Shown piece after piece: positions 31,760 through 56,400 of a DNA stretch of 64,000 nt. This DNA comes from Closterium sp. NIES-65. Taxonomy: Eukaryota > Streptophyta > Zygnematophyceae > Desmidiales > Closteriaceae. The position numbers and the translations under genes were made by a program. The notes under the pieces were generated by a model. It did no database searches and was not told the origin of the DNA. It was given only the letters and a program-made list of their open reading frames with translations. Location: positions 1 through 64,000 of the forward strand of contig CANXME010000046.1 of assembly GCA_948144175.1 (NCBI GenBank), written 5' to 3'. Each line of letters starts with the position of its first letter. The first letter of the stretch is position 1.

Positions 31760-32070
31760 TTCTCCCAGATTCCATCCCCTGCTCCCAGATTCCATCCCCT
31801 TCTCCCAGATTCCATCCCCTTCTCCCAAATTCCATCCCATTCTCCCATATTTCATCCCCTTCTCCCAAATTCTATACCCTTCTCCCAGATTCCATCCCCT
31901 TCTCCCAGAATCCATCCCCTTCTCCCAGATTCCATCCCCTTCTTCCAGATTCCATCCCATTCTCCCAGATTCCATCCCCTTCTCCCCGGTTCCATCCCCT
32001 TCTCCCAGATTCTATCCCCTTCTCCCAGATTCCATCCCCTTCTCCCAGATTCTATCCCCTTCTCCCAGAT
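31760..32070. repeat. Satellite B duplicated block (offset 700 bp), copy 1
   Basis: Rare variants gctcccagat (31781), a ttctataccc unit, cagaatccatc and tctccccggt (31981) recur in identical order 700 bp downstream (32481 and 32681). About 310 bp matches with essentially no change. Confidence 0.8.
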
Positions 32071-32459
32071 TCCACCCCCTTCTCCCTGATTCCATCCCCT
32101 TCTCCCTGATTCCATCCCCTTCTCCCTGATTCCATCCCCTTCTCCCAGATTCCATCCCCTTCTTCCAGATTCCATCCCATTCTCCCAGATTCCATCCCCT
32201 TCTCCCCGGTTCCATCCCCTTCTCCCAGATTCCATCCCCTTCTCCCAGATTCCATCCCCTTCTCCCAGATTCCATCCCCTTCTCCCAGATTCCACCCCCT
32301 TCTCCCAGATTCCACCCCCTTCTCCCTGATTCCATCCCCTTCTCCCTGATTCCATCCCCTTCTCCTAGATTCCATCCCCTTCTCCCAGATTCCATCCCGT
32401 TCTCCCAGATTCCATCCCCTTCTCCCAGATTCCATCCCCTTCTCCTAGATTCCATCCCC

Positions 32460-32770
32460 TTCTCCCAGATTCCATCCCCTGCTCCCAGATTCCATCCCCT
32501 TCTCCCAGATTCCATCCCCTTCTCCCAAATTCCATCCCATTCTCCCATATTTCATCCCCTTCTCCCAAATTCTATACCCTTCTCCCAGATTCCATCCCCT
32601 TCTCCCAGAATCCATCCCCTTCTCCCAGATTCCATCCCCTTCTTCCAGATTCCATCCCATTCTCCCAGATTCCATCCCCTTCTCCCCGGTTCCATCCCCT
32701 TCTCCCAGATTCTATCCCCTTCTCCCAGATTCCATCCCCTTCTCCCAGATTCTATCCCCTTCTCCCAGAT
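32460..32770. repeat. Satellite B duplicated block (offset 700 bp), copy 2
   Basis: This is the partner of 31760-32070. The run of rare variants from gctcccagat at 32481 to tctccccggt at 32681 is the same. The match fades after about 32770, where a tccatcctct variant appears. Confidence 0.8.
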
Positions 32771-33989
32771 TCCATCCTCTTCTCCCAGATTCCATCCCCT
32801 TCTCCCAGATTCCATCCCCTTCTCCCAAATTCCATCCCCTTCTCCCAGATTCCATCCCCTTCTCCCAGATTCCATCCCCTTCTCCCAGATTCCATCCCCT
32901 TCTTCCAGATTCCACCCCCTTCTCCCAGATTCCACCCCCTTCTCCCTGATTCCATCCCCTTCTCCCAGATTCCATCCCCTTCTCCCAGGTTCCACCCCCT
33001 TCTCCCAGATTCCACCCCCTTCTCCCAGATTCCATCCCCTTCTCCCTGATTCCATCCCCTTCTCCTAGATTCCATCCCCTTCTCCCATATTCCATCCCCT
33101 TCTTCCATATTCCATCCCCTTCTCCCAGATTCCATCCCCTTCTCCCAGATTTCATCCCCTTCTCCCAGATTCCACCCCCTTCTCCCAGACTCCATCCCCT
33201 TCTCCCTGATTCCATCCCCTTCTCCGTCATTCTATCCTATTCTCCCCGATTCCATCCCCTTCTCCCAGATTCCATCCCCTTCTCCCATACTCCATCCCCT
33301 TCTCCCAGATTCCATCCCCTTCTCCCAGATTCCATCCCCTTCTCCCAGATTCCATCCCCTTCTCCCTGATTCCATCCCCTTCTCCCAGATTCCACCCCCT
33401 TCTCCCAGATTCCATCCCCTTCTCCCAGATTCCATCCCCTTCTCCCAGATTCCATCCCCTTCTCCCAGATTCCATCCCCTTCTCCCAGATTCCATCCCCT
33501 TTTCCCAGATTCCATCCCCTTCTCCCAAATTCCATCCCCTTCTCCCAGATTCCATCCCCTTCTCCCAGATTCCATCCCCTTCTCCCAGATTCCATCCCCT
33601 TCTCCCAGATTCCATCCCCTTCTCCCAGATTCCATCCCGTTCTCCCTGATTCCATCCCCTTCTCCCAGATTCCATCCCCTTCTCCCAGATTCCACCCCCT
33701 TCTCCCAGATTCCATCCCCTTCTCCCATATTCCATCCCATTCTCCCAGATTCCATCCGCTTCTCGCAGATTCCATCCCCTTCTCCCATATTCCATCCCCT
33801 TCTCCCAGATTCCATCCCCTTCTCCCAGATTCCATCCCCTTCTCCCAGATTCCACCCCCTTCTCCCAAATTCCATCCCTTTCTCCCAGATTCCATCCCCT
33901 TCTCCCTGATTCCATCCCCTTCTCCCTGATTCCATCCCCTTCTCCCAGATTCCATCCCCTTCTCCCAAATTCCATCCCCTTCTCCCAGA

Positions 33990-35189
33990 TTCCATCCCCT
34001 TCTCCCAGATTCCATCCCCTTCTCCCAGATTCCATCCCCTTCTCCCAGATTCCACCCCCTTCTCCCAGATTCCACCCCCTTCTCCCTGATTCCATCCCCT
34101 TCTCCCAGATTCCATCCCCTTCTCCCAGATTCCACCCCCTTCTCCCAGATTCCACCCCCTTCTCCCAGATTCCATCCCCTTCTCCCTGATTCCTTCCCCT
34201 TCTCCCAGATTCCATCCCCTTCTCCCAGATTCCATCCCCTTCTCCCATATTCCATCCCCTTCTCCCAGATTCCATCCCCTTCTCCCAGATTTCATCCCCT
34301 TCTCCCTAATTCCACCCCCTTCTCCCAGACTCCATCCCCTTCTCCCAGATTCCATCCCCTTCTCCCATATTCCATCCCCTTCTCCCATATTCCATCCCTT
34401 TCTCCCAAATTCCATCCCCTCCTTCCAGATTCCATCCCCTTCTCCCAGATTCCATCCCCTTCTCCCAGATTCCATCCCCTTCTCCCAGATTCCATCCCCT
34501 TCTCCCAGATTCCACCCCCTTCTCCCAGATTCCACCCCCTTCTCCCTGATTCCATCCCCTTCTCCCAGATTCCATCCCCTTCTCCCAGATTCCACCCCCT
34601 TCTCCCAGATTCCACCCCCTTCTCCCAGATTCCATCCCCTTCTCCCTGATTCCATCCCCTTCTCCCAGATTCCATCCCCTTCTCCCAGATTCCATCCCCT
34701 TCTCCCATATTCCATCCCCTTCTCCCAGATTCCATCCCCTTCTCCCAGATTTCATCCCCTTCTCCCTAATTCCACCCCCTTCTCCCAGACTCCATCCCCT
34801 TCTCCCAGATTCCATCCCCTTCTCCCATATTCCATCCCCTTCTCCCATATTCCATCCCTTTCTCCCAAATTCCATCCCCTCCTTCCAGATTCCATCCCCT
34901 TCTCCCAGATTCCATCCCCTTCTCCCAGATTCCATCCCCTTCTCCCAGATTCCATCCCCTTCTCACAGATTTCATCCCCTTCTCCCAGATTCCATCCCCT
35001 TCTCCCCGATTCCATCCCCTTCTCCCAGATTCCATCCCCTTCTCCCAGATTCCATCCCCTTCTCCCTCATTCCATCCCCTTCTCCCCGATTCCATCCCCT
35101 TCTCCCATATTCCATCCCCTTCTCCCATATTCCATCCCCTTCTCCCAGATTCCATCCCCTTCTCCCAGATTCCATCCCCTTCTCCCAGA
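33990..35189. repeat. Satellite B 1,200-bp tandem duplication, copy 1
   Basis: The rare marker ccttccagat is at 34421 and 34881 in this copy and at 35621 and 36081 in the next, all offset by 1,200 bp. Other paired markers are tctcacagat (34961 and 36161) and tccctcattcc (35061 and 36261). Inside each copy a 460-bp sub-duplication is also visible (markers 34421 to 34881). Confidence 0.82.
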
Positions 35190-36389
35190 TTCCATCCCCT
35201 TCTCCCAGATTCCATCCCCTTCTCCCAGATTCCATCCCCTTCTCCCAGATTCCACCCCCTTCTCCCAGATTCCACCCCCTTCTCCCTGATTCCATCCCCT
35301 TCTCCCAGATTCCATCCCCTTCTCCCAGATTCCACCCCCTTCTCCCAGATTCCACCCCCTTCTCCCAGATTCCATCCCCTTCTCCCTGATTCCTTCCCCT
35401 TCTCCCAGATTCCATCCCCTTCTCCCAGATTCCATCCCCTTCTCCCATATTCCATCCCCTTCTCCCAGATTCCATCCCCTTCTCCCAGATTTCATCCCCT
35501 TCTCCCTAATTCCACCCCCTTCTCCCAGACTCCATCCCCTTCTCCCAGATTCCATCCCCTTCTCCCATATTCCATCCCCTTCTCCCATATTCCATCCCTT
35601 TCTCCCAAATTCCATCCCCTCCTTCCAGATTCCATCCCCTTCTCCCAGATTCCATCCCCTTCTCCCAGATTCCATCCCCTTCTCCCAGATTCCATCCCCT
35701 TCTCCCAGATTCCACCCCCTTCTCCCAGATTCCACCCCCTTCTCCCTGATTCCATCCCCTTCTCCCAGATTCCATCCCCTTCTCCCAGATTCCACCCCCT
35801 TCTCCCAGATTCCACCCCCTTCTCCCAGATTCCATCCCCTTCTCCCTGATTCCATCCCCTTCTCCCAGATTTCATCCCCTTCTCCCAGATTCCATCCCCT
35901 TCTCCCATATTCCATCCCCTTCTCCCAGATTCCATCCCCTTCTCCCAGATTTCATCCCCTTCTCCCTAATTCCACCCCCTTCTCCCAGACTCCATCCCCT
36001 TCTCCCAGATTCCATCCCCTTCTCCCATATTCCATCCCCTTCTCCCATATTCCATCCCTTTCTCCCAAATTCCATCCCCTCCTTCCAGATTCCATCCCCT
36101 TCTCCCAGATTCCATCCCCTTCTCCCAGATTCCATCCCCTTCTCCCAGATTCCATCCCCTTCTCACAGATTTCATCCCCTTCTCCCAGATTCCATCCCCT
36201 TCTCCCCGATTCCATCCCCTTCTCCCAGATTCCATCCCCTTCTCCCAGATTCCATCCCCTTCTCCCTCATTCCATCCCCTTCTCCCCGATTCCATCCCCT
36301 TCTCCCATATTCCATCCCCTTCTCCCATATTCCATCCCCTTCTCCCAGATTCCATCCCCTTCTCCCAGATTCCATCCCCTTCTCCCAGA
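35190..36389. repeat. Satellite B 1,200-bp tandem duplication, copy 2
   Basis: This block follows copy 1 directly and matches it at nearly every base; one difference is ttcatcccc near 35871 against ttccatcccc near 34671. The copy carries the same internal 460-bp and 740-bp spacing of the ccttccagat marker. Confidence 0.8.
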
Positions 36390-38020
36390 TTCCATCCCCT
36401 TCTCCCATATTCCATCCCCTTCTCCCAGATTCCATCCCCTTCTCCCAGATTCCATCCCCTTCTCCCAGATTCCATCCCCTTCTCCCAGATTCCATCCCCT
36501 TCTCCCATATTCCATCCCCTTCGCCCAGATTCCATCCCCTTCTCCCAGATTCCATCCCCTTCTTCCAGATTCCATCCCCTTCTCCCAGATTCCACACCCT
36601 TCTCCCAGATTCCATCCCCTTCTCCCAAATTCCATCCCCTTCTCCCTGATTCCATCCCCTTCTCCTAGATTCCATCTTCCTCATTCCATCCCCTTCTCCC
36701 AGATTCCATCCCCTTCTCCCAGATTCCATACCCTTCTCCCAGATTCCATCCCCTTCTCCCAGATCCCATCCCCTTCTCCCATATTCCATCCCCTTCTCGC
36801 AGATTCCATCCCCTTCTCCCAGATTCCATCCCCTTCTCCCAGATTCCATCCCCTTCTCCCTGATTCCATCCCCTTCTCCCAGATTCCACTCCCATCTTCC
36901 AGATTCCATCCCCTTCACCCAGATTCCATCCCCTTATCCCAGATTCCATCCCCTTCTCCCAGATTCTATCCCCTTCTCCCAAATTCCATCCCCTACTCTC
37001 AGATTCCATCCCCTTCTTCCAGATCCCATCCCCTTCTCCCAGATTCCATCCCCTTCTCCCAGATTCCATCCCCTTCTCCCAAATTACATCCCCTTCTCCC
37101 ATATTACATCCCCTTCTCCCAGATTCCATCCCCTTCTCCCATATTCCATCCCCTTCTCCCAGATTCCATCCCCTTCTCCCAGATTCCATCCCCTTCTTCC
37201 TCATTCCATCCCCTTCTCCCAGATTCCATCCCCTTCTCCCAGATTCCATACCCTTCTCCCTTATTCCATCCCCTTCTCCCATATCCCATCCCCTTCTCCC
37301 ATATTCCATCCCCTTCTCGCAGATTCCATCCCCTTCTCCCAGATTCCATCCCCTTCTCCCAGATTCCATCCCCTTCTCCCAGATCCCATCCCCTTCTCCC
37401 ATATTCCATCCCCTTCTCCCAGACTCCATAACCTTCTCCCAGATTCCATCCTCTTCTCCCAGACTCCATACCCTTCTCCCATATTCCATCCGCTTCTCGC
37501 AGATTCCATCCCCTTCTCCCAGATTCCATCCCCTTCTCCCAGATTCCATCCCCTTCTCCCAAATTTCATCCCCTTCTACCAGATTCCATCCCCTTCTCCC
37601 AGATTCTATCCCCTTCTCCCAGATTCTATCCCCTTCTCCCATATTCCATCCCCTTCTCTCAGATTCCACCCCCTTCTCCCAGATTCCATCCCCTTCTCCC
37701 AGATTCCATCCCCTTCTCCTTGATTCCATCCCCTTCTCCCAGATTCCATCCCCTTCTCCCAGATTCTATCCCCTTCTCCCAGATCCCATCCCCTTCTCCC
37801 ATATTCCATCCCCTTCTCCCAGACTCCATACCCTTCTCCCAGATTCCATCCTCTTCTCCCAGACTCCATACCCTTCTCCCATATTCCATCCGCTTCTCGC
37901 AGATTCCATCCCCTTCTCCCAGATTCCATCCCCTTCTCCCAGATTCCATCCCCTTCTCCCAAATTTCATCCCCTTCTACCAGATTCCATCCCCTTCTCCC
38001 AAATTTCATCCCCTTCTACC

Positions 38021-38968
38021 AGTAAAGGGAATCTAGCGGTCTCACTCGATCAGAAGGTGGGAAATATATAAATCTAGTGAGCTAATAAGGTTCGAAAGGA
38101 ATCTAATGCATATGTATATAGAAAGTGGTGCATTGGCCAGGTCGGTCAGTATGGGAACTTAGAGTGCAAATGCCTGGGAGAACGGAACCGCTCAGATCTC
38201 GCATAATACACGGAATCTAGTGGTCTCACTCAAATATAAGGTAGGAAATATATTCATCCAGTGACATAAGGGTTTGAAAGGTAACTAATGCACATGTGTA
38301 GAGAAAATGGTGCATCGGCCAGTCTGGCCGGCATTTCGCACTCATAGTGCAGGTGGGGCCAGGGAGAACGGAAACGCTCGTTTCTCAAAATGGAGAGGGA
38401 ATCTAACGGTCTCACTCGATCAGAAGGTGGGAAATATATAAATCTAGTCAGCTAAAATGGTTTGAAATGTATTCAACGCACATGTATAGAGAAAATGGTG
38501 CATTGGCCAGGTCGGTCAGTATCGGAACTTAAAATGCAAATGCCAGGGAGAACGGAAGCGCTCAGATCTGGCATAGTACACGGAATCAAGTGGTCTCACT
38601 CAAATAGAAAGTAGGAAATATATTCATCTAGTGAACGTAAGAGTTTGAAAGGTAACTAACGAACATGTGTAGAGAAAATTGTGCATCGGCGAGTCTGGCC
38701 GGCATTTCGCACTTATAGTGCAACTAGGGCCAAGGAGAACGGAAATGCTCATTTCTCAAAAAGTAGAGGGAATCTAGCGGTCTCACTCGATCAGAAGGTG
38801 GGAAATATATAAATCTAGTGAGCTAATAAGGTTCGAAAGGAATCTAATGCATATGTATATAGAAAATGGTGCATTGGCCAAGTCGGTCAGTATGGGAACT
38901 TAGAGTGCAAATGCCTGGGAGAACGGAAGCGATCAGATCTCGCATAGTACACGGAATCTAGTGGTCTC
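38021..38968. repeat. Satellite C: 371-bp dimeric repeat, block 1
   Basis: The array starts at the boundary with satellite B, at agtaaagggaatctagcgg. The unit has two related halves of about 185 bp. Half A carries cactcgatcagaaggtggg and cattggccaggtcggtcag; half B carries ctcactcaaatagaaggtag and cggccagtctggccg. Both halves share ggaatctag, ggtctcactc, aaatggtgcat and gagaacggaa. The block ends at the GTCTC target-site copy (38964-38968) next to element 1. Confidence 0.93.
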
Positions 38969-39098
38969 TGACAAAGTTTGAAGAAAGAAAGAGGGTTGAA
39001 CTAGCAAGAATGAGGATACAAATAGCAAACCCTAGAAGGGTTGTACTCACTATAGAGCACCCCACTACAGGCTAGAACAATAAGATAATATTCTGACA
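38969..39098 (-). repeat. Element 1 3' LTR (130 bp)
   Basis: Starts tgacaaagtttgaag and ends atattctgaca on the plus strand; on the minus strand it begins TGTCAGAATA and ends TTTGTCA. It is identical at all 130 positions to the copy at 40301-40430, indicating recent insertion or conversion. Confidence 0.93.
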
Positions 39099-39109
39099 CA
39101 CCCCCATAG
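39099..39109 (-). other. Element 1 polypurine tract
   Basis: The minus strand reads CTATGGGGGTG immediately before the 3' LTR. The same 11 bases precede the 3' LTR of element 2 (44654-44664). This is the expected site for plus-strand DNA priming. Confidence 0.8.
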
Positions 39110-39341
39110 CCAAAGTGGGGTGTAATCAGCAGAGCAGGCAAAGCAAAACAAGCTCAGGGTGGATCACAATGTCACCACACATTCTAAGCACAAGTTCAAG
39201 AAGAAATAGTTTAGAGTTCACAATTATAAGCAAAGCTAGTGGTAGTCACAACGGGCAAGTGAGGAGGAGGAGGGAGAGTGAGGGGAGAGGAGACAGGAGG
39301 CGACGGCTGAAGCTGCAGACACACGGGCAACAGGAGGCAGA

Positions 39342-39485
39342 CTGGCACAGCGGCTACCGGACAGCGCCCGGACTACAGGAGTAACAGGCCCCGCGGCTCA
39401 AATAGCGGCGGACGGGCAACGGACCCACGGGCGGCTGGCACAGCTGGCTACGACTGGGCTACCGGGACAGCGCCCCGGACTACAG
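39342..39485. repeat. Imperfect duplication inside element 1
   Basis: The motif ggctaccggacagcgcccgg followed by actacagg near 39351 recurs near 39457 with small insertions (ctaccgggacagcgccccgg). It is spaced by about 100 bp and shows local duplication in the non-coding 3' part of element 1. Confidence 0.6.
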
Positions 39486-39544
39486 GTGCTGCGGACGACA
39501 AGCCGGCAGCCTCCGCTCAACCTCCCGCAAACAGTCCCACCCCC

Positions 39545-39642
39545 CTGATACACACCCACTGCTACACCGCTAGCTCTACTCCCACGCACCCCCCTGATAC
39601 ACACCCACTGCTACACCGCTAGCTCTACTCCCACGCACCCCC
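39545..39642. repeat. 49-bp tandem duplication inside element 1
   Basis: Two consecutive copies of a 49-bp unit beginning ctgatacacacccactgc and ending cccacgcacc occupy 39545-39593 and 39594-39642. No coding role is evident. Confidence 0.88.
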
Positions 39643-39835
39643 CTTAAACCCTAAACCCGAGTCTCCCACACAACCACCCCCCTCAGCGACAGCTGCAGCA
39701 GTGGGAGACGGAGGAGGAGGAGGAGCAAAGGGAGGAAGGCACACCGAGCACCCCCATACCCGCCACCCCACAGCTCGCCCCTCAGGTCGCCTCGACGGAC
39801 GACGGGAAATGGGGGGGAGAGGGGGGGGGGGGGGG

Positions 39836-40082
39836 CCGGTGCCGCGACGAGGGGCGGGGCCGCGACGGTCGGGGCGGGGCCGCGACATATGGCGGGGCCG
39901 CGACGTAGGGCGGGGCCGCGACATAGGGCGGGGCCGCAACATAGGGCGGGGCCGCAAAGGTAGGGCGGGGCCGAGCCGGGCAGGCGCACGGGCGGCGACG
40001 GGCCGGGGCGGGGCCGCGACGTAGAGCGGGGCCGCGTCGAGGGGCGGGGCCGCGACGATCGGGGCGGGGCCGCGACGTAGGG
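39836..40082. repeat. GC-rich minisatellite in the element 1 leader
   Basis: About a dozen imperfect copies of ggcggggccgcgac with short variable linkers (gta, ata, ggtc, gatc) lie here. A run of 15 G precedes it at 39821-39835. On the element's own (minus) strand the core reads gtcgcggccccgcc, the same core as the leader minisatellite of element 2. Such sequence could form strong RNA structure. The long open frames across it are compositional. Confidence 0.85.
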
Positions 40083-40288
40083 GAGAAGCCCGCCGCGCGC
40101 CCCGGGGCGCACAGCGGGCAATGAACCGCCGCGCGCCTCGGGGCGCACGGCGGGCAGAAGGGCGCACGGCGGGATGAAAAAATGCCGCACGCCACGGGGC
40201 GTGCAGCTCAGAGAGTAGTAGCAGTAGTAGCAGCGGAAGCTAAGCGGTGGTAAGCCCACCCACAGGATCGATCCAGGGGGATCGACCT

Positions 40289-40300
40289 GCTCTGATAGCA
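40289..40300 (-). other. Element 1 primer-binding site
   Basis: Directly inside the 5' LTR (minus orientation) the sequence is TGCTATCAGAGC. It differs by one base from TGGTATCAGAGC, the usual plant copia site complementary to the 3' end of initiator-Met tRNA. Confidence 0.8.
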
Positions 40301-40430
40301 TGACAAAGTTTGAAGAAAGAAAGAGGGTTGAACTAGCAAGAATGAGGATACAAATAGCAAACCCTAGAAGGGTTGTACTCACTATAGAGCACCCCACTAC
40401 AGGCTAGAACAATAAGATAATATTCTGACA
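40301..40430 (-). repeat. Element 1 5' LTR (130 bp)
   Basis: Identical to 38969-39098. It begins at the TGTCAG terminus next to the GTCTC target-site copy and ends at TGTCA beside the primer site. No clear TATA box could be assigned with confidence. Confidence 0.93.
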
Positions 40431-40914: not shown

Positions 40915-41045
40915 TGTCAGATTATCATAGCTGATGCATGTTTGTAGGCTATAGTGGGGTAGCACATATGGGGTACAGCTTTCTAGGGTTGTATTTGTAC
41001 CCAACTCTGACTTAGTCATTTTCATTCCTGTTTACTTGTTTCACA
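40915..41045 (+). repeat. Element 2 5' LTR (131 bp)
   Basis: Begins TGTCAGATTATCATAG and ends TTGTTTCACA (TG...CA termini). It matches 44665-44795 at every one of 131 positions. It shares tagtggggt, ttctagggtt and tatttgta blocks with the element 1 LTR. Confidence 0.94.
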
Positions 41046-41056
41046 TGGTATAGAGC
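41046..41056 (+). other. Element 2 primer-binding site
   Basis: TGGTATAGAGC lies directly after the 5' LTR. It equals the initiator-Met tRNA site TGGTATCAGAGC with the C missing, which may weaken priming. Confidence 0.8.
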
Positions 41057-41149
41057 GGGTCCTTCCTAAGGACCGTTTTTTTAGGGCCCACCGAAGCGCG
41101 CCCCGAGGCGCGCATTTTTTTTCGCGACCCTTCGGTTCGCCATTGCTCT

Positions 41150-41768
41150 CGCGGCCCCGCTGTCCCTCTGACGCGGCCCCGCCACCCCTGCTTGACGCGG
41201 CCCCGCCGCCTCCTCTGCAGCGGCCCCGCCGCCTCCTCTGACGCGGCCCCGCCGCCCGCTGATCGCGGCCCCGCCGCTGGGTCTGACGCGGCCCCGCCGC
41301 CGGCTCTGACGCGGCCCCGCCGCCCGCTGATCGCGGCCCGCCGCCGGCCCAGACGCGTCCCCGCCGCCGGCTCTGACGCGGCCCCGCCGCCCGCTGATCG
41401 CGGCCCGCCGCCGGCCCTGACACGTCCCCGCCGCCGGCTCTGACGCGGCCCCGCCGCCGCCTCCTGATCGCGGCCCCGCCCCGGCTCTCTCTCGCGGCCT
41501 CGCCGCCGGCCCTGACGCGGCCCCGCCCCGGCTCTCACGCGGCCCCGCCGCCGGCTCTCTTACGGCCCCGCCGCCGGCCCTGACGCGGCCCCCTGCCTCG
41601 GCTCTCAAGCGGCCCCGCCGCCGGCTCTCTTGCGGCCCTGCCGCCAGCTCTGAAGCGGCCCCGCCCCGGCTCTCACGCGGCCCCTGCCCAGGCTCTCAAG
41701 CAGCCCCGCCGCCGGTCCTCACGCGGCCCTGCCGCCGGCTCTGACGCGGCCCCGCCCCGGTTCTTTCA
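41150..41768. repeat. GC-rich minisatellite in the element 2 leader
   Basis: About 600 bp built from imperfect repeats around gacgcggccccgccgcc, with spacers such as ggctct, gcccgctgat and gccggccc. It replaces the region where gag, protease and most of integrase would lie. The end joins the integrase tail near 41770. The same cggccccgcc core occurs in element 1 in the same element orientation. Open frames on both strands here (Arg-, Ala- and Gly-rich) are compositional. Confidence 0.88.
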
Positions 41769-41906
41769 CAGGCAGGGTGGCAGTTTTACCACCCCTCCTC
41801 TCGTCGTGTTCTGTCCTCCCAGGACGTCACGTTCGACGAGTCAGTCCCCTTCTACCGTCTCTTCCCCTACCGCACTCCTTCCCTCCCCCCTCCCCCGGAC
41901 TTCCTT

Positions 41907-43175
41907 GTGCCGGTTCCCCCTCCGGTAGACCCCCTCCCCCCTCAGGTTCCTGCCCCCTCAGGTGTGTCCCAGGTAGACGCCGTTGACCCGGTCGAGGTTA
42001 CTGGTGACTCTGGTGCTGCTGCGGGTGCTGAGCCTGGGGGTGCTGACTCTGGGGGTGCTGTGCGCGGGGGTGCTGAGCCTGGGGGTGCTACTGCTGGGGG
42101 TGCTGGGCCTGAGGGTGCTACTGCGGAGGGTGCGGAGCCTGGGGGTGCTGAGTCGGGGGGTGCTGTGCCTGGAGGTGCTGGGTCTGGGGGTGCTGGGTCG
42201 GGAGCTGCTGAGCCTGGGGGTGCTGAGCTGGGAGCTGCTGAGCCTGGGGGTGCTGCGTCTGGAGCTGCTGAGCCTGGGGTTTCTCCTGCTGCTGCGTCTC
42301 GCCGGGAGCCCCTCTCTCCACAGGAGCTGCGTGAGTGGTTCGCTCGCCGCTGGAGGCGTGCTGCTGAGTCTGGAGGTGCTGCTGGAGCTGGAGCTGGAGC
42401 TTCTTCGACCGTCGAGGGTACGGGTGCTGCCGGTCCCGGAGCTGCTGGACCTGCGGGTCCTCCGGGAGCTGGAGCTGCTGAGGGCGTTGGTGCTGAGCCT
42501 ACTGCTGTTGGTCCTGCCGCTGGAGGTGTGGGTGGCGCTGGTGCTGTCGCTGAGGGTGCTGGTGCTGTCCGTGCTGAGTCTGGAGCTGCCGCGTGGCCTC
42601 GGCCGTACTTTGTTCCGCTCCTGCAGCAGGTTCTTGGTCTTTCTCCTCCAGTAGAGGGTCCACCGCCTGTCCAGTCGCAGTCCCTGCTGGAGCCTTCCTC
42701 TCCACTGCCTGCTCCCTCTCCTTACACTGGTCCTACTGGAGGTCTTGCTGAGCGTCGTGAGCCTGCGTCTGGTCCCGCGTCGCCTGTTCGTGCTGCTCGC
42801 GCTGGTGGTCGCAGTTCGCGTCAGCGTCCTCCTCCTGTCCCTGGCACGCACCGGATGTCTTTGCGTCCGTCCACTGCTCCTCTGCGTGCCCCTTTGCCTT
42901 CTCCTCCTGAGTCCTCTCTCCCTGCGCTTGCCGACCCTGAGTCGGACTCTCTTCGTGCTGCCAGTCCTACTGTCACGCGTCTGCTTGCTACTGTCGTCAC
43001 TGACCCCTCTTTTGAGTCCACTGCTGCGTCTGCTCTAGTCGCTGAGCTCGTCGACTTTGCTGCTAGCTGTCGTCTCGACTACGCTGCTAGTCTTGTTGCT
43101 GAGTCTGCGTCTGTCTGTCCTCCGTCCGTCGGGGGTGAGTGTGCTCTTGGCACGGACGTCCTAGAGGACAGGTAG
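41907..43175 (+). CDS. Open segment of the Pol remnant: Ala/Gly/Pro-rich linker upstream of reverse transcriptase
   Basis: This 422-residue open segment starts at the first in-frame ATG, but the homology begins upstream at about 41778, so this start is probably not natural. Residues 30 to about 130 are low-complexity Gly/Ala/Glu/Pro encoded by a 15-bp-like repeat (gctgagcctgggggt). Residues 351-422 (starting AASPTVTRLLATVVTDPSFE) look like an ordinary conserved linker leading into reverse transcriptase. It ends at TAG 43173-43175, after which the same frame continues with similar sequence to the next ATG at 43326. It would encode no complete enzymatic domain. Confidence 0.6.
   Translation: MPVPPPVDPLPPQVPAPSGVSQVDAVDPVEVTGDSGAAAGAEPGGADSGGAVRGGAEPGGATAGGAGPEGATAEGAEPGGAESGGAVPGGAGSGGAGSGAAEPGGAELGAAEPGGAASGAAEPGVSPAAASRREPLSPQELREWFARRWRRAAESGGAAGAGAGASSTVEGTGAAGPGAAGPAGPPGAGAAEGVGAEPTAVGPAAGGVGGAGAVAEGAGAVRAESGAAAWPRPYFVPLLQQVLGLSPPVEGPPPVQSQSLLEPSSPLPAPSPYTGPTGGLAERREPASGPASPVRAARAGGRSSRQRPPPVPGTHRMSLRPSTAPLRAPLPSPPESSLPALADPESDSLRAASPTVTRLLATVVTDPSFESTAASALVAELVDFAASCRLDYAASLVAESASVCPPSVGGECALGTDVLEDR
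42010..42290 (+). repeat. 15-bp in-frame repeat in the Pol linker
   Basis: Imperfect copies of gctgagcctgggggt and variants run through this interval, encoding an AEPGG/ADSGG-type repeat in the Pol frame. The period is a multiple of three, so length changes would keep the frame. A second plus-strand frame stays open as a leucine-rich shadow (from 41983), as expected from the composition. Confidence 0.75.
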
Positions 43176-43325
43176 GAGGAGTTACAGTGTCTAGCGGCTG
43201 CTTCACCTCATCTCGCGTCTGTACTGCTTGCCCCTGAGGGAGACCCGGATGCACTAGACATCCCGACTCCGCGTTCTTACGCGGAGGCCGTAGAGGGCCC
43301 CTACTCCTCTCAGTGGCAGGCAGCT

Positions 43326-44453
43326 ATGGATGCAGAGATGGCTTCCTGGAAGTCCACAGGCACCTACGTTGACGCGGTTCCCCCTCCTGGGGCGAACATC
43401 GTCAGTGGCATGTGGATCTTCAGGGTGAAGCGGCCGCCGGGCTCTCCACCTGTCTTCAAGGCACGGTACGTTGCTCGTGGCTTCAGTCAGCGGCAGGGAG
43501 TTGACTACTTTCAGACCTTCTCTCCTACCCCGAAGATGACTACTCTTCGGGTGCTGCTGCACATAGCCGCTCAGCGCGACTACGAGCTTCACTCTCTCGA
43601 CTTCAGCACTGCGTTCTTGCAGGGTAGCCTGCACGAGGAGATCTGGCTTCGCCGTCCACCTGGCTTCACTGGGACTTTCCCTCCTGGCACCCAGTGGAGC
43701 CTCCGACGGCCAGTCTACGGTCTCCGCCAGGCACCGCGTGAGTGGCACGACACACTGAGGACTACGCTTGCGGCTCTTGGGTTTGCTCCTTCTACTGCTG
43801 ACCCGTCGCTGTTTCTTCGCACCGACACTTCCCTGCCGCCGTTCTACATCCTCGTGTACGTCGACGACTTGGTCTTTGCCACAGCGGACACTGCTGGACT
43901 CGCCTACGTGAAGTCCGAGCTGCTGAAGAGACACACGTGCACAGACCTGGGTGAACTGCGCAGCTACCTTGGCTTGCAGATCACTCGGGACAGAGCACAG
44001 GAGCTTCGCTGGCTCACCTACCTGCTGTCTACCTTCAGTCTTGGTTCCGGCTCTGTTTCCTGGCGGTCTACTCGCTCGTCTTCGGTTCTCGGCTCCAGTT
44101 GTGAGGCTGAGATCTACGCCGGGGCCATGGCTGCACAGGAGCTTCGCTGGCTCACCTACCTGCTGACTGACCTTGGAGAGCCACCTCGTTCTCCTCCAGT
44201 GCTGTACGTAGACAACAAGGCCATGCTGGCCTTGTGTCGAGAGCAGCGCTTGGAGCACAGAACGAAGCACATTGCTCTCCGCTACTTCCTTGCTCGTGAG
44301 CTGCAGCAGCGTGGTCAGTTGCGACTTGCGTACGTGGCCTCTGAGGCCAACACTGCTGATGTGTTCACCAAGGCACTCGCGCCTTGTGACCATCAGCGCT
44401 TTTGCACCCAGCTGGGTCTTGTGCCTGTCTTGCCTCACTTGCTCTCCTCTTGA
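43326..44453 (+). CDS. Open segment of the Pol remnant: truncated copia reverse transcriptase/RNase H
   Basis: The 375-residue open segment is in the same frame as the upstream one. Residues 1-223 are a copia reverse transcriptase (fingers and palm): FKARYVARGFSQ near 45, the DFSTAFLQG palm motif near 93, YGLRQAPREWH near 130 and the catalytic YVDD at 178-181. At residue 224 it jumps into AQELRWLTYLL (224-234), a copy of residues 270-280, then into RNase H from residue 236 (SGSVSWRS, EAEIYAGA, DNKAM at 296, RTKHI, ADVFTKAL near 350). The thumb and the start of RNase H are lost. The upstream stop at 43173 separates it from the linker. Codon use is GC-rich at third positions, unlike the AT-rich satellite around it. 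Confidence 0.75.
   Translation: MDAEMASWKSTGTYVDAVPPPGANIVSGMWIFRVKRPPGSPPVFKARYVARGFSQRQGVDYFQTFSPTPKMTTLRVLLHIAAQRDYELHSLDFSTAFLQGSLHEEIWLRRPPGFTGTFPPGTQWSLRRPVYGLRQAPREWHDTLRTTLAALGFAPSTADPSLFLRTDTSLPPFYILVYVDDLVFATADTAGLAYVKSELLKRHTCTDLGELRSYLGLQITRDRAQELRWLTYLLSTFSLGSGSVSWRSTRSSSVLGSSCEAEIYAGAMAAQELRWLTYLLTDLGEPPRSPPVLYVDNKAMLALCREQRLEHRTKHIALRYFLARELQQRGQLRLAYVASEANTADVFTKALAPCDHQRFCTQLGLVPVLPHLLSS
43995..44027 (+). repeat. 33-bp duplicated filler at the Pol deletion junction, copy 1
   Basis: The 33 bases starting gcacaggagcttcgctgg are exactly repeated at 44133-44165. The downstream copy is the natural RNase H position; this upstream copy sits between the reverse transcriptase palm and the RNase H fragment, exactly where sequence has been lost. 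Confidence 0.88.
44133..44165 (+). repeat. 33-bp duplicated segment, source copy in RNase H
   Basis: Exact match to 43995-44027. It encodes the AQELRWLTYLL helix that normally follows the EAEIYAGAMA motif of copia RNase H, so it is taken as the source copy. Confidence 0.88.
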
Positions 44454-44664
44454 CTTCACTTGTACTGTGACATATATATATACCTGCTCTTGCTTGTCTA
44501 GTTTTATATATATGTCTGTACTCCTGCATGTGAACTGGCCTCTGGCCCTGCTCTTGTGCTCGGACTGTGTGGTGACTTCGTGATCCACCCTGAGCTTGCT
44601 TTGCTTTGCTTTGCTTGACTGGTCTTGTGACCCCTTGTTCTCCCCCACTTTGCCTATGGGGGTG
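44454..44664 (+). other. Element 2 3' untranslated region with polypurine tract
   Basis: A non-coding stretch holding two short AT microsatellites (catatatatatac near 44471 and ttatatatat near 44504), a gctttgctttgctttgc run near 44595 and the polypurine tract CTATGGGGGTG at 44654-44664. The end of element 1 carries a related version of the region gatccaccctgagcttg through the polypurine tract. Confidence 0.8.
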
Positions 44665-44795
44665 TGTCAGATTATCATAGCTGATGCATGTTTGTAGGCT
44701 ATAGTGGGGTAGCACATATGGGGTACAGCTTTCTAGGGTTGTATTTGTACCCAACTCTGACTTAGTCATTTTCATTCCTGTTTACTTGTTTCACA
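44665..44795 (+). repeat. Element 2 3' LTR (131 bp)
   Basis: Identical to the 5' LTR at 40915-41045 and followed by the GGCAT target-site copy at 44796-44800. Confidence 0.94.
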
Positions 44796-50400: not shown

Positions 50401-53097
50401 ACGCTCATTTCTCAAAAAGTAAAGGGAATCTAGCGGTCTCACTTGATCAGAAGGTGGGAAATATATAAATTTAGTGAGCTAATAAGGTTCGAAAGGAATC
50501 TAATGCATATGTATATGGAAAATGGTGCATTGGCCAGGTCGGTCAGTATGGGAACTTAGAGTGCAAAAGCCAGGGAGAACGGAAGCGCTCAGATCTCGCA
50601 TAGTATACGGAATCTAGTGGTCTCATTCAAATAGAAGGTAGGAAATAAATTCATCTAGTGAACGTAAGGGTTTGAAAGGTAACTAACGCACATGTGTAGA
50701 GAAAATGGTGCATCGGTCAGTCTGGCCGGCATTTCGCACTTATAGTGCAAGTAGGGCCAAGGAGAACGGAAACGCTCATTTCTCAAAACGTAAAGGGAAT
50801 CTAGCGGTCGGTGGGAAATATATAAATCTAGTGAGCTAATAAGGTTCGAAAGGAATCTAATGCATATGGATATGGAAAATGGTGCATTGGCCAGGTCGGT
50901 CAGTATGGGAACTTAGAGTGCAAAAGCCAGGGAGAACGGAAGCGCTCAGATCTCGCATAGTACACGGAATCTAGTGGTCTCATTCAAATAGAAGGTAGGA
51001 AATAAATTCATCTAGTGAACGTAAGGGTTTGAAAGGTAACTAACTAACGCACATGTGTAGAGAAAATGGTGCATCGGTCAGTCTGGCCGGCATTTCGCAC
51101 TTATAGTGCAAGTAGGGCCAAGGAGAACGGAAACGCTAATTTCTCAAAAAGTAGAGGGAATCTAGCGGTCTCACTTGATCAGAAGGTGGGAAATATATAA
51201 ATCTAGTGAGCTAATAAGGTTCGAAAGGAATCTAATGCATATGTATGTGGAAAATGGTGCATTGGCCAGGTCGGTCAGTATGGGAACTTAGAGTGCAAAT
51301 GCCAGGGAGAACGGAAGCGCTCACATCTCGCATAGTACACGGAATCTAGTGGTCTCATTCAAATAGAAGGTAGGAAATAAATTCATCTAGTGAACGTAAG
51401 GGTTTGAAAGGTAACTAACGCACATGTGTAGAGAAAATGGTGCATCGGCCAGTCTGGCCGGCATTTCGCACTTATAGTGCAACTAGGGCCAAGGAGAACG
51501 GAAACGCTCATTCCTCAAAAAGTAAAGGGAATCTAGCCGTCTCACTCGATCAGAAGGTGGGAAATATATAAATCTAGTGAGCTAATAAGGTTTGGAAGGA
51601 ATCTAATGCATATGTATATGGAAAATGGTGCATTGGCCAGGTCGGTCAGTATGGGAACTTAGAGTGCAAATGCCTGGGAGAACGGAACCGCTCAGATCTC
51701 GGATAATACACGGAATCTAGTGGTCTCACTCAAAAATAAGGTAGGAAATATATTCATCTAGTGAACATAAGGGTTTGAAAGGTAACTAACGCACATGTGT
51801 AGAGAAAATGGTGCATCGGCCAATCTGGCCGGCATTTCGCACTCATAGTGTTGGTGGGGCCAGGGAGAACGGAAACGCTCGTTTCTCAAAAAGTAGAGGG
51901 AATCTAACGGTCTCACTCGATCAGAAGGTGGGAAATATATAATTATAGTGAGCTAATAAGGTTCGAAAGGAATCTAATGCATATGTATATGGAAAAAGGT
52001 GCATTGGCCAGGTCGGTCAGTATGGGAACTTAGAGTGCAAATGCCAGGGAGAACGGAAGCGCTCAGATCTCGCATAGTACATGGAATCTAGTGGTCTCAC
52101 TCAAATAGAATGTAGGAAATAAATTCATCTAGTGAACGTAAGGGTTTGAAAGGTAACTAACGCACATGTGTAGAGAAAATGGTGCATCGGCCAGTCTGGC
52201 CGGCATTTCGCACTTATAGTGCAACTAGGGCCAAGGAGAACGGAAACGCTCATTCCTCAAAAAGTAAAGGGAATCTAGCCGTCTCACTCGATCAGAAGGT
52301 GGGAAATATATAAATCTAGTGAGCTAATAAGGTTCGAAAGGAATCTAATGCATATGTATATGGAAAGTGGTGCATTGGCCAGGTCGGTCAGTATGGGAAC
52401 TTAGAGTGCAAATGCATGGGAGAACGGAACCGCTCAGATCTCGCATAATACACGGAATCTAGTGGTCTCACTCAAATATAAGGTAGGAAATATATTCATC
52501 TAGTCAACGTAAGGGTTTGAAAGGTAACTAACGCACATGTGTAGAGAAAATGGTGCATCGGCCAGTCTGGCCGGCATTTCGCACTCGTAGTGCAAGTGGG
52601 GCCAGGGAGAACGGAAACGCTCGTTTCTCAAAAAGTAGAGGGAATCTAACGGTCTCACTTAATCAAAAGGTGGGAAATATATAAATCTAGTCAGCTAAAA
52701 AGGTTTGAAATGTATTCAACACACATGTATAGATAAAATGGTGCATTGGCCAGGTCGGTCAGTATCGGAACTTAAAATGCAAATGCCAGGGAGAACGGAA
52801 GCGCTCAGATCTCGCATAGCATACGGAATCAAGTGGTCTCACTCAAATAGAAAGTAGGAAATATATTCATCTAGTGAACGTAAGGGTTTGAAAGGTAACT
52901 AACGCACATGTGTAGAGAAAATTGTGCATCGGCCAGTCTGGCCGGCATTTCGCACTTATAGTGCAAGTAGGGCCAAGGAGAACGGAAACGCTCATTTCTC
53001 AAAAAGTAAAGGGAATCTAGCGGTCTCACTCGATCAGAAGGTGGGAAATATATAAATCTAGTGAGCTAATAAGGTTCGAAAGGAATCTAATGCATAT

Positions 53098-53236
53098 TGT
53101 CAGAGGTCCACTGGTGATCCCCGATCGATCCTAGGGAAGGGTTACAAGCACGTTTGCCTGGGGGGTTATGGGCGCACTGACCCGCTAGTGAAACAAGCCC
53201 TTTTATCCCAATGGTCTAGTGGTTGGGATTCTGACA
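53098..53236 (+). repeat. Element 3 5' LTR (139 bp)
   Basis: Starts TGTCAGAGGTCC and ends GGGATTCTGACA. Contains gatccccgatcgatcc, and near the 3' end a hairpin ATCCCAA...TTGGGAT whose loop is TGGTCTAGTGG. All five differences from the other LTR lie before 53189; the last 48 bp are identical. Confidence 0.93.
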
Positions 53237-53272
53237 TGGTATCAGAGCGAAGGTCTCGGGTTGGAATCTCGG
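53205..53272 (+). promoter_or_regulatory. tRNA-like A box and B box spanning the LTR/primer-site junction
   Basis: The LTR end tggtctagtggttgggattc (53212-53231) matches the D-arm and A box of a tRNA-Glu-type gene, with one likely change at tRNA position 21. 47 bp downstream of the A-box start, ggttggaatct (53259-53269) is a B box with two mismatches to GGTTCGANTCC. It sits in a possible T-arm: stem tcggg/ctcgg with two wobbles and a 7-base loop ttggaat. The acceptor strands do not pair, so this is not a working tRNA gene. An RNA polymerase III internal promoter, or a tRNA-mimic fold in the element RNA, is inferred. Alternatively the A-box match is a by-product of the ATCCCAA/TTGGGAT hairpin. 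Confidence 0.45.
53237..53248 (+). other. Element 3 primer-binding site
   Basis: TGGTATCAGAGC directly follows the 5' LTR and is a perfect copy of the typical plant copia/TRIM site complementary to the initiator-Met tRNA 3' end. Confidence 0.88.
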
Positions 53273-53277
53273 TGTAT

Positions 53278-53298
53278 GCACTTCGGGCATCCCAGTGC
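53278..53298 (+). other. Hairpin just before the element 3 polypurine tract
   Basis: GCACT pairs with AGTGC and, after a 2-base bulge (tc), GGG pairs with CCC around a CAT loop, giving 8 base pairs in 21 bases. It lies between the T-arm-like sequence and the polypurine tract. It could be a packaging or dimer signal in an element with almost no other internal sequence; that role is inference. Confidence 0.5.
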
Positions 53299-53305
53299 GG
53301 GGGGG

Positions 53306-53444
53306 TGTCAGAGGTCCATTGGTGATCCCCGATCGATCCTAGGGAAGGGTTACAGGCACGTTTGCCTGGGGGGTTATGGGCGCACAAACCCGCTACTGAA
53401 ACAAGCCCTTTTATCCCAATGGTCTAGTGGTTGGGATTCTGACA
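53306..53444 (+). repeat. Element 3 3' LTR (139 bp)
   Basis: Second copy of the LTR, differing at five positions from 53098-53236. It is followed by CATAT and then the interrupted satellite continues (gtatatagaaaatgg). It carries the same A-box-like 3' end, but without the B-box partner downstream. Confidence 0.93.
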
Positions 53445-56400
53445 CATATGTATATAGAAAATGGTGCATTGGCCAGGTCGGTCAGTATGGGAACTTAGAG
53501 TGCAAATGCCAGGGAGAACGGAAGCGTTCAGATCTCGCATAGTACACGGAATATAGTGGTCTCACTCAAATAGAAGGTAGGAAATAAATTCATCTAGTGA
53601 ACGTAAGGGTTTGAAAGGTAACTAATGCACATGTGTAGAGAAAATGGTGCATCGGCCAGTCTGGCCGGCATTTCGCACTTATAGTGCAAGTAGGGCCAAG
53701 GAGAATGGAAACGCTCATTTCTCAAAAAGTAAAGGGAATCTAGCGGTCTCACTCGATTAGAACGTGGGAAATATATAAATCTAGTGAGCTAATAACGTTC
53801 GAAAGGAATCCAATGCATATGTATATGGAAAATGGTGCATTGGCCAGGTCGGTCAGTATGGGAACTTAGAGTGCAAATGCCAGGGAGAACGGAAGCGCTC
53901 AGATCTGGCATAGTACACGGAATCAAGTGGTCTCACTCAAATAGAAAGTAGGAAATATATTCATCTAGTGAACGTAAGGGTTTGAAAGGTAACTAACGCA
54001 CATGTGTAGAGAAAATGGTGCATCGGCCAGTCTGGCCAGAATTTCGCACTTATAGTGCAAGTAGGGCCAATGAGAACGGAAACGCTCATTTCTCAAAAAG
54101 TAAAGGGAATCTAGCGGTCTCACTCGATCAGAAGGTGGGAAATATATAAATCTAGTGAGCTAATAAGGTTCGGAAGGAATCTAATGCATATGTATATGGA
54201 AAGTGGTGCATTGGCCAGGTCGGTCAGTATGGGAACTTAGAGTGCAAATGCCTGGGAGAACGGAACCGCTCAGATCTCGCATAATACACGAAATCTAGTG
54301 GTCTCACTCAAATATAAGGTAGGAAATATATTCATCTAGTGAACGTAAGGGTTTGAAAGGTAACTAACGCACATGTGTACAGAAAATGGTGCATCGGCCA
54401 GTCTGGCCGGCATTTCGCACTCGTAGTGCAGGTGGGGCCAGGGAGAACGGAAACGCTCGTTTCTCAAAAAGTAGAGGGAATCTAACGGTCTCACTCGATC
54501 AGAAGGTGGGAAATATATAAATCTAGTCAGCTAAAAAGGTTTGAAATGTATTCAACGCACATGTATAGAGAAAATGGTGCATTGGCCAGGTCGGTCAGTA
54601 TCGGAACTTAAAATGCAAATGCCAGGGAGAACGGAAGCGCTCAGATCTCGCATAGTACACGGAATCAAGTGGTCTCACTCAAATAGAAAGTAGGAAATAT
54701 ATTCATCTAGTGAACGTAAGGGTTTGAAAAGTAACTAACGCATATGTGTAGAGAAAATTGTGCATCGGCCAGTCTGGTCGGCATTTCGCACTTATAGTGC
54801 AACTAGGGCCAAGGAGAACGGAAACGCTCATTTCTCAAAAAGTAGAGGGAATCTAGCGGTCTCACTCGATCAGAAGGTGGAAAATATATAAATCTGGTGA
54901 GCTAATAAGGTTCGAAAGGAATCTAATGCATATGTATATGGAAAATGGTGCATTGGCCAGGTCGGTCAGTATGGGAACTTAGAGTGCAAATGCCGGGGAA
55001 ACGGAAGCGCTCAGATCTCGCATAGTACACGGAATCTAGTGGTCTCACTCAAATAGAAGGTAGGAAATAAATTCATCTAGTGAACGTAAGGGTTTGAAAG
55101 GTAACTAACGCACTAGTGTAGAGAAAATGGTGCATCGGCCAGTGTGGCCGGCATTTCGCACTTATAGTGCAACTAGGGCCAAGGAGAACAGAAACGCTCA
55201 TTTCTCAAAAAGTAAAGGGAATCTAGCGGTCTCACTCGATCAAAAGGTGGGAAATATATAAATCTAGTGAGCTAATAAGGTTCGAAAGGAATCTAATGCA
55301 TATGTATATGGAAAATGGTGCATTGGCCAGGTCGGTCAGTATGGGAACTTAGAGTGCAAATGCCAGGGAGAACGGAAGCGCTCAGATCTGGCATAGTACA
55401 CGGAATCTAGTGGTCTCACTCAACTAGAAGGTAGGAAATAAATTTATCTAGTGAACGTAAGGGTTTGAAAGGTAACTAACGCACATGTGTAGAGAAAATG
55501 GTGCATCGGCCAGTCTGGCCGGCATTTCGCACTTATAGTGCAAGTAGGGCCAAGGAGAACGGAAACGCTCATTTCTCAAAAAGTAATGGGAATCTAGCGG
55601 TCTCACTCGATCAGAACGTGGGAAATATATAAATCTAGTGAGCTAGTAAGGTTCGAAAGGAATCTAATGCATATGTATATGAAAAATGGTGCATTGGCCA
55701 GGTCGGTCAGTATGGGAACTTAGAGTGCAAATGCCAGGGAGAACGGAAGCGCTCAGATCTCGCATAGTACACGGAATCTAGTGGTCTCACTCAAATAGAA
55801 TGTAGGAAATAAATTCATCTAGCGAACGTAAGGGTTTGAAAGGTAACTAACGCACATGTGTAGAGAGAATGGTGCATCGGCCAGTCTGGCCGGCATTTCG
55901 CAGTTATAGTGCAAGTAGGGCCAAGGAGAACGGAAACGCTCATTTCTCAAAAAGTAAAGGGAATCTAGCGGTCTCACTCGATCAGAAGGTGGGAGATATA
56001 TAAATCTAGTGAGATAATAAGGTTCGGAAGGAATCTAATGCATATGTATATGGAAAATGGTGCATTGGCCAGGTCGGTCAGTATGGGAACTTAGAGTGCA
56101 AATGCCTGGGAGAACGGAACCGCTCAAATCTCGCACAATACACGGAATCTAGTGGTCTCACTCGAATATATAGTAGTTCATATATTCATCTAGTGAACGT
56201 AAGGGTTTGAAAGGTAACTAACGCACATGTGTAGAGAAAATGGTGCATCGGCCAGTCTGGCCGGGATTTCGCACTCATAGAACAGGTGGGGCCAGGGAGA
56301 ACAGAAACGCTCGTTTCTCAAAAAGTAGAGGGAATCTAACGGTCTGACTCGATCAGAAGGTGGGAAATATATAAATCTAGTCAGCTAAAAAGGTTTGAAA

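What the first reader, a model, noticed from the sequence alone, without database searches (positions are those of the whole stretch)
53205..53272. tRNA-like bipartite Pol III promoter built across an LTR and primer-site junction
Seen: the LTR 3' end carries a 20-base match to a tRNA-Glu-type D-arm/A box (tggtctagtggttgggattc). At normal A-to-B spacing, the short internal region carries a T-arm with a degenerate B box. Known: Cassandra TRIMs carry 5S rRNA-derived Pol III promoters in their LTRs. Inference: this element may use a tRNA-derived promoter, and only a 5' LTR-plus-internal arrangement completes it, so the 5' copy would be favoured. The 48 bp containing the A box are identical in the two LTRs while five changes lie elsewhere.
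Basis: partly seen in the sequence, partly recalled or inferred. Interest (0 to 1): 0.8.

Follow-up and report, generated by a model that had tools for sequence, protein, structure and literature searches.

The report
Split tRNA-like promoter in mini-retrotransposon
A tiny plant jumping gene carries the two halves of a tRNA-gene-style start signal on either side of the joint between its end repeat and its middle, so that only a complete element, not a lone end repeat, would hold the whole signal; whether it is used has not been tested.

Summary
The window copy is a 347-bp TRIM (139-bp LTRs, 69-bp interior, 5-bp TSD catat) inside a 371-bp satellite. Its A box (53212-53222) is exact. 36 nt on, past the primer-binding site, lies a B box that in this copy misses two positions.

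The window's own genome (874 Mb, unnamed plant) changes the picture. LTR end + PBS occurs at 4,408 places (<=3 mismatches; reversed control 0). Other copies usually have a consensus B box: 40 of 47 full-length rows, 40 of 56 junctions chosen on the A side only, 6 of 6 five-prime junctions chosen on neither box. The window's damaged B box was seen in 3 rows, all at one satellite insertion site.

Best explanation: a type-2 Pol III promoter split by the LTR/PBS junction, starting near a conserved CAA and ending at the TTTT of the 3' LTR (218-nt RNA, 10-nt R, inferred); this copy is probably dead. It works like Helenus TRIMs but fails Helenus's defining feature (tRNA-derived sequence with both boxes in the LTR): a new variant of a known kind. 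Transcription is untested. 'tRNA-Glu-type' is not supported for this host, and the 48-bp identity argument is not significant.

The parts
53093..53097 (.). left target-site duplication catat (right copy 53445-53449)
   Evidence: 5-bp TSDs at 42 of 47 full-length rows
53098..53236 (+). 5' LTR, 139 bp
53125..53137 (+). U3 stretch resembling antisense tRNA-iMet T arm
   Evidence: alignment; function untested
53157..53177 (+). U3 stretch resembling antisense tRNA-iMet anticodon arm
   Evidence: (15 of 17 nt); low divergence, 0.017 per column over 53156-53177
53194..53196 (+). CAA, proposed Pol III start (53195)
   Evidence: CAA in 108 of 123 junctions; role inferred from plant tRNA genes (PMC11700998 passages)
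53201..53204 (+). TTTT in 5' LTR
   Evidence: TTTT in 114 of 123 junctions
53205..53229 (+). 7-bp inverted repeat with the A box as loop
53212..53222 (+). A box TGGTCTAGTGG
   Evidence: consensus fit in 108 of 123 junctions
53237..53248 (+). primer-binding site TGGTATCAGAGC (initiator tRNA-Met)
   Evidence: host tRNA-iMet confirmed, 6 places at 100% over 72 nt
53259..53269 (+). B box, damaged in this copy (8 of 10 fixed positions)
53299..53305 (+). G run before the 3' LTR, presumed polypurine tract
   Evidence: sequence
53306..53444 (+). 3' LTR, 139 bp (A box at 53420-53430, no B box after it)
53409..53412 (+). TTTT in 3' LTR, proposed Pol III terminator
   Evidence: exactly two TTTT and none between in 43 of 48 rows, the window copy counted twice; role inferred

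Best explanation
This is one copy of a large plant TRIM family that carries a type-2 (tRNA-gene-like) Pol III promoter cut in two by the LTR/interior junction: A box at the 3' end of the LTR, B box in the interior, primer-binding site between them. Shown: the architecture, its repetition at thousands of places, lower divergence of its parts, and damage to the B box in this copy. Inferred: TFIIIC binds both boxes; Pol III starts near the CAA (53195) and stops at the TTTT of the 3' LTR (53412), giving a 218-nt RNA with AAGCCCTTTT at both ends as a 10-nt R; tRNA-iMet primes; Copia proteins copy and integrate it. A solo or 3' LTR has only the A box, so the promoter would exist only in 5' LTR plus interior and be rebuilt at each round. 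The window copy lies at an insertion site that spread with the satellite and is probably silent.
For: Exact A box with an exact B box 36 nt on in family copies; 2 of 20000 shuffles. B box exact in 40 of 47 full-length rows and A box unchanged in 47 of 47. Chosen on PBS + B box only: consensus A box exactly 25 nt before the PBS in 65 of 89 junctions. Chosen on the A side only: exact B in 40 of 56. Chosen on a divergent U3 only: 6 of 6 five-prime junctions with both boxes exact, of 10 places fetched. Second family: A unchanged 11 of 12, B exact 8 of 12. Variants carried by >=5 copies: 1 of 21 fixed box and TTTT columns against 24 of 86 U3 columns, P=0.023, while private variants per column are similar (A 1.00, B 0.91, U3 0.98). 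Mean divergence: A block 0.019, B 0.021, PBS 0.013, against U3 left 0.098 and PBS-B spacer 0.138. The window's damaged B box is found in 3 of 47 rows, all with the same satellite site and TSD. CAA and TTTT are placed as in plant tRNA genes.
Against: No transcript or binding data. The window copy's B box lacks the base equivalent to C56; a C56G change cut yeast TFIIIC binding 370-fold (PMC11811891 passage). 83 of the 123 aligned junctions come from loci found through an exact B box, so B conservation there is partly by selection; the 40 others are too alike to test B (U3 columns with shared variants 2 of 86 among them; 47 of 76 U3 windows are as uniform as B). 23 of 129 LTR windows are as conserved as the A box, and a U3 block, 53156-53177, is equally conserved. 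Two A-box columns do carry shared variants. 13 of 89 junctions lie behind an LTR unlike the TRIM's, 12 of them without a consensus A box 25 nt before the PBS. The TTTT a few bases after the proposed start would have to be passed. Absence of TTTT over ~200 nt is not improbable by itself (not tested).
Confidence: 0.6

Rival explanations
1. The conserved blocks serve reverse transcription or packaging: a U5 hairpin whose loop happens to fit an A box, and a T-arm-like element beside the PBS. Transcription is by Pol II.
For: The A box is the loop of a 7-bp stem whose closing pair is A-T in 107 and G-C in 11 of 123; PBS and a U3 block are as conserved as the boxes; the same PBS-T-arm interior also occurs behind LTRs without the A box.
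Against: Exact A and B boxes at tRNA-gene spacing are rare by chance (2 of 20000); the shared B-box variant falls on its free position; the window region does not fold better than shuffles; the stem change may reflect few events. I noticed no TATA box by eye; not tested.
Confidence: 0.22
2. The boxes bind TFIIIC without Pol III transcription (an 'extra TFIIIC' site), with an effect on chromatin.
For: TFIIIC sites without Pol III are described in several eukaryotes (PMC11724288 passage).
Against: It does not explain the CAA start motif or TTTT placement, nor why a mobile element would keep an A box.
Confidence: 0.08
3. The boxes are a relic: a tRNA-like piece captured by an ancestor and carried along in young copies without function.
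For: Many copies are very similar, so little time has passed for decay; B conservation among unselected copies cannot be tested well.
Against: U3 and the PBS-B spacer have diverged between subfamilies while the boxes have not; P=0.023 is moderate only.
Confidence: 0.08
4. The T arm/B box is only a leftover of extended complementarity to the primer tRNA-iMet.
For: The Copia B leader in this window does resemble antisense tRNA-iMet (P=0.0005).
Against: The TRIM interior after the PBS does not (P=0.26).
Confidence: 0.02

Closest known systems
Helenus TRIMs (Kojima 2024, PMC10886601; proposed TRIMp3 group)
   Same: Short non-coding LTR element with PBS and PPT, tRNA-derived box sequences, no functional tRNA, plant form with short LTR (120 bp), short interior (85 bp) and 5-bp TSD; fungal forms linked to Copia.
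   Different: In Helenus boxes A and B are described inside the LTR; here the LTR holds only the A box and the B box lies in the interior beyond the PBS.
Cassandra TRIMs
   Same: TRIM with a Pol III promoter in its transcribed 5' part, start in the 5' LTR, stop in the 3' LTR and a very short R (18 bp, PMC10886601); same PBS TGGTATCAGAGC (PMC7215508 passage).
   Different: Promoter is 5S rRNA-derived and wholly in the LTR; here tRNA-type and split. Cassandra transcription is reported; here untested.
SMART (FRetro129), PMC3281118
   Same: Very small plant LTR element (292 bp) dependent on a Copia-like partner.
   Different: Its LTR has a TATAAAA box (passage); no Pol III boxes are mentioned in the passages seen.
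tRNA-derived SINEs
   Same: A and B boxes of tRNA origin near the 5' end of a short non-coding RNA.
   Different: This element has LTRs, PBS and integrase-type 5-bp TSDs.
Ty3 bipartite PBS (PMC5371799 passages)
   Same: tRNA-iMet contacts a PBS near the 5' end and a U3 segment near the 3' end; here U3 has antisense tRNA-iMet resemblance.
   Different: Here it is a sequence resemblance only, in a Copia-associated TRIM.

Membership tests
TRIM | Short (<1 kb) element with two LTRs, PBS, polypurine tract, no coding capacity, TSD | tested here: met
   347 bp, LTR 139, PBS, G run, 5-bp TSD in 42 of 47 rows; length leaves no room for a polyprotein
Helenus | tRNA-derived sequence with boxes A and B inside the LTR | tested here: not met
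   LTR 53098-53236 has the A box but no B-box fit after it; B lies at 53259-53269 beyond the PBS
Helenus | 5-bp TSD in plants and fungi | tested here: met
Helenus | tRNA origin of the box region | tested here: inconclusive
   D and T arms resemble several plant tRNAs, Pro best of ten recalled sequences; no tRNA model match
Helenus | Transcription by Pol III | not testable with these tools
   no RNA data; not shown for Helenus either (PMC10886601)
Cassandra | 5S rRNA-derived sequence in the LTR | tested here: not met
   no 5S match in Rfam at E<=10 over 53050-53500
tRNA-derived SINE | no LTRs; non-LTR integration | tested here: not met
   two LTRs, PBS and constant 5-bp TSDs
Ty3-like bipartite PBS | U3 segment that pairs with the primer tRNA | tested here: inconclusive
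   antisense tRNA-iMet similarity P 0.0005-0.0325 in four U3s, sense control 0.62-0.99; pairing untested

The most novel reading that the evidence does not exclude
A retrotransposon whose Pol III promoter exists only as an LTR-interior composite with the primer-binding site lodged between its boxes: the promoter is put together by reverse transcription itself, is absent from solo and 3' LTRs, and goes with a Ty3-like second contact for the same primer tRNA in U3.
Probability: 0.4. Interest if true: 0.75.

Novelty: new variant of a known kind. Interest (0 to 1): 0.6.

Why it matters
It would be a second promoter layout for Pol III-driven LTR elements. With both boxes in the LTR, solo and 3' LTRs are possible Pol III promoters; with a split promoter only complete 5' ends are. 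That predicts which of about 10,400 LTR ends in this genome can be transcribed, and could limit read-out into neighbouring DNA. Surveys that look for tRNA-like sequence within LTRs, as the Helenus survey did, could miss such elements.

Tried and rejected
tRNA gene or tRNA-like fold: no support. Descent from the host's tRNA-Glu: not supported. A recalled plant tRNA-Gly matched the genome only at 84.2-103 bits over part of its length, 86-95% identity, so that recalled sequence is not the host's exact one. B box as antisense tRNA-iMet: P=0.26. LTR-identity argument: not significant. Viral and bacterial collections: no match to three junction patterns; five matches to a 17-mer in viral contigs (L001-L005) were not pursued. 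The hairpin survey (199 LTR ends, 192 without indel) used a fuzzy search that did not list some known variants (L097, L099); its counts are not used. The first LTR columns are mis-set by flank differences; one search starts at 53111. The 'T-arm complement' row (53120-53134) is a few bases off the aligned stretch 53125-53137. An earlier count said the A box is changed in one of the 47 rows (L061_1664); the recount shows 47 of 47 unchanged, the change lies in the stem.

Sampling: of 100 places listed, 90 were fetched (30 with the search, 60); a planned last batch of 9 was not fetched. They gave 89 distinct junctions, 76 with the TRIM LTR (>=0.78 identity) and 13 without. In one search, 130 junctions became 123 by collapsing 8 satellite-borne ones into one. 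L166-L177 lie outside and are counted apart (L171 and L172 share flanks). Of 10 places, 6 are 5' junctions; 4 are 3' or solo ends, 3 of these with a changed A box (L195, L196, L197; the last two share a flank). 12 of 40 listed hits were fetched.

Papers: PMC10886601 seen in parts 1-4 and 6 of 6, outline and passages. Passages only: PMC4717578, PMC11724288, PMC7215508, PMC11811891, PMC3281118, PMC3852365, PMC11700998, PMC5371799. Others: search listings. That a split LTR/interior Pol III promoter is not in print rests only on searches of an open-licence library.

Full report
WHAT IS THERE. Window 53098-53444 is a 347-bp LTR element in a 371-bp satellite array: LTRs of 139 bp with 5 differences, a 69-bp interior, PBS TGGTATCAGAGC at 53237-53248, a G run before the 3' LTR, 5-bp TSD catat. 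The PBS complements the 3' end of plant initiator tRNA-Met: a recalled plant tRNA-iMet matches the own genome at 100% over 72 nt in 6 of 33 listed places, and the same PBS is called tRNA-Met-type in Jatropha Copia elements (PMC3852365 passage). The host is a plant by its tRNAs; I do not know the species.

THE BOXES. The A box at 53212-53222 is an exact TRGYNNARNNG. The B site at 53259-53269 departs from GGTTCGANTCC at two of ten fixed positions. One is the position of C56, where a C-to-G change cost yeast TFIIIC 370-fold in binding (PMC11811891 passage). The boxes are 36 nt apart with the PBS between. A plus a B site with <=2 mismatches occurs in 68 of 4000 shuffles, so this copy alone makes a weak case. 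The 48-nt identity has P=0.12.

OTHER COPIES. The window's genome could be searched (874 Mb, 2400 contigs). From its hits and those I cut 47 distinct full-length rows; 42 show a 5-bp TSD. All 47 have the A box unchanged and 40 an exact B box; the window's damaged form occurs in 3. Those 3 are among nine rows at the same satellite site with TSD catat; the other six have an exact B box. So this insertion spread with the satellite, and the damage arose within it.

HOW MANY. LTR end + PBS (48-mer, <=3 mismatches) 4,408 places; LTR end alone (36-mer, <=3) 10,408; PBS + exact B box 3,258; reversed controls 0 in all three.

SELECTION-AWARE COUNTS. Chosen on PBS + B box only: consensus A box exactly 25 nt before the PBS in 65 of 89 junctions, from 90 of 100 listed places. 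Chosen on the A side only: exact B box in 40 of 56 exact junctions on contigs C1-C84. Of the 16 others, one is the window copy; of 15 fetched, 14 have a changed but recognisable B box, 3 of them GGTTCAAATCC, and 1 has another interior. Among the 40 aligned junctions outside the B-selected loci: B 34 of 40, A 40 of 40. Second family (12 of 40 hits fetched): A unchanged 11 of 12, B exact 8 of 12. Chosen on a divergent U3 only (10 of 40 places fetched): 6 are 5' junctions, all with both boxes exact; 4 are 3' or solo ends, 3 with a changed A box.

CONSTRAINT. On 123 aligned junctions private variants per column are similar (U3 0.98, A 1.00, B 0.91, TTTT 1.25, PBS 0.75, stem 0.57), but variants carried by five or more copies fall on 24 of 86 U3 columns, 2 of 11 A-box, 1 of 11 B-box (its free position), 0 of 12 PBS and 0 of 4 TTTT columns. 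Fixed box positions plus TTTT against U3: 1 of 21 vs 24 of 86, P=0.023; the block 53197-53234 against U3: 4 of 38 vs 24 of 86, P=0.037. Divergence: U3 left part 0.098; 53156-53177 0.017; A block 0.019; PBS 0.013; PBS-B spacer 0.138; B box 0.021. Against: 83 of the 123 come from loci found through an exact B box; the other 40 are too alike to test B; a U3 block is as conserved as the A box; 23 of 129 LTR windows are; at a cut of 3 copies TTTT has a shared variant in 1 of 4 columns and U3 in 38 of 86. A shortened A box in L135-L137 proved to be one insertion copied with its surroundings (TSD gaggt in all three), with an intact A box in the 3' LTR; L146, with another TSD, has a similar one.

HAIRPIN. 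The A box is the loop of a 7-bp stem. The closing pair is A-T in 107, G-C in 11, other in 5 of 123; these may be few events.

MECHANISM (inferred). CAA at 53194-53196 sits about 10 nt before the position that corresponds to tRNA +1, close to the -1 to -10 range where CAA marks plant tRNA gene starts (PMC11700998 passages), and is kept in 108 of 123. TTTT stands in each LTR with none between in 43 of 48 rows. Start at 53195 and stop at 53412 would give a 218-nt RNA with AAGCCCTTTT at both ends, a short R like Cassandra's 18 bp (PMC10886601). The first TTTT would have to be passed; unproved. The window also holds Copia elements (RVT_2 at 43176-44450), and chimeras tie them to the TRIM: L081 and L106 have a Copia A LTR, L113 and L130 a Copia B LTR, in front of TRIM interior and TRIM LTR; L111 has a 127-bp non-TRIM 5' LTR, a TRIM 3' LTR and a matching 5-bp TSD. 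Strand transfer between co-packaged RNAs at the shared PBS would explain this and points to Copia as helper (inferred).

tRNA CONNECTIONS. D and T arms resemble several plant tRNAs (Pro highest of ten recalled), not the host's tRNA-Glu. U3 resembles antisense tRNA-iMet (P 0.0005-0.0325 in four U3s; sense control 0.62-0.99), reminiscent of Ty3, whose PBS has a second part in U3 (PMC5371799 passages).

COMPARISON. Helenus (PMC10886601) is the nearest kind: TRIMs with tRNA-derived sequence in the LTR, one plant species listed. The place of the boxes differs here. Searches of an open-licence library showed no split version.

VERDICT. A real feature repeated across the family, most likely a Pol III promoter in a new layout; this copy is probably dead; transcription is untested.

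Noticed in passing
L081, L106, L111, L113, L130: Chimeric elements: a Copia A or B LTR (or another non-TRIM LTR) in front of TRIM interior and TRIM LTR; L111 has a 5-bp TSD. Suggests strand transfer between co-packaged TRIM and Copia RNAs at the shared PBS.
   Followed up: partly
53125-53137 and 53157-53177; Copia B leader, minus strand, about 40240-40300: U3 of the TRIM and the leader of Copia B resemble antisense initiator tRNA-Met, like the U3 part of Ty3's bipartite PBS.
   Followed up: partly
about 40915-44795 (plus) and 38968-40430 (minus): Two Copia-type elements in the satellite: one with a reverse transcriptase domain (RVT_2), one short with GC-rich interior repeats.
   Followed up: partly
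L060, L061: Tandem TRIM copies sharing LTRs, spaced about 208 bp.
   Followed up: no
L118, L124, L135-L137: 5' and 3' LTRs of one element differ in the A-box hairpin, as if from two subfamilies.
   Followed up: partly
1-29412 and 29414-38022: A 29-kb array of a 31-bp unit followed directly by an 8.6-kb array of a 20-bp unit, then the 371-bp satellite.
   Followed up: no
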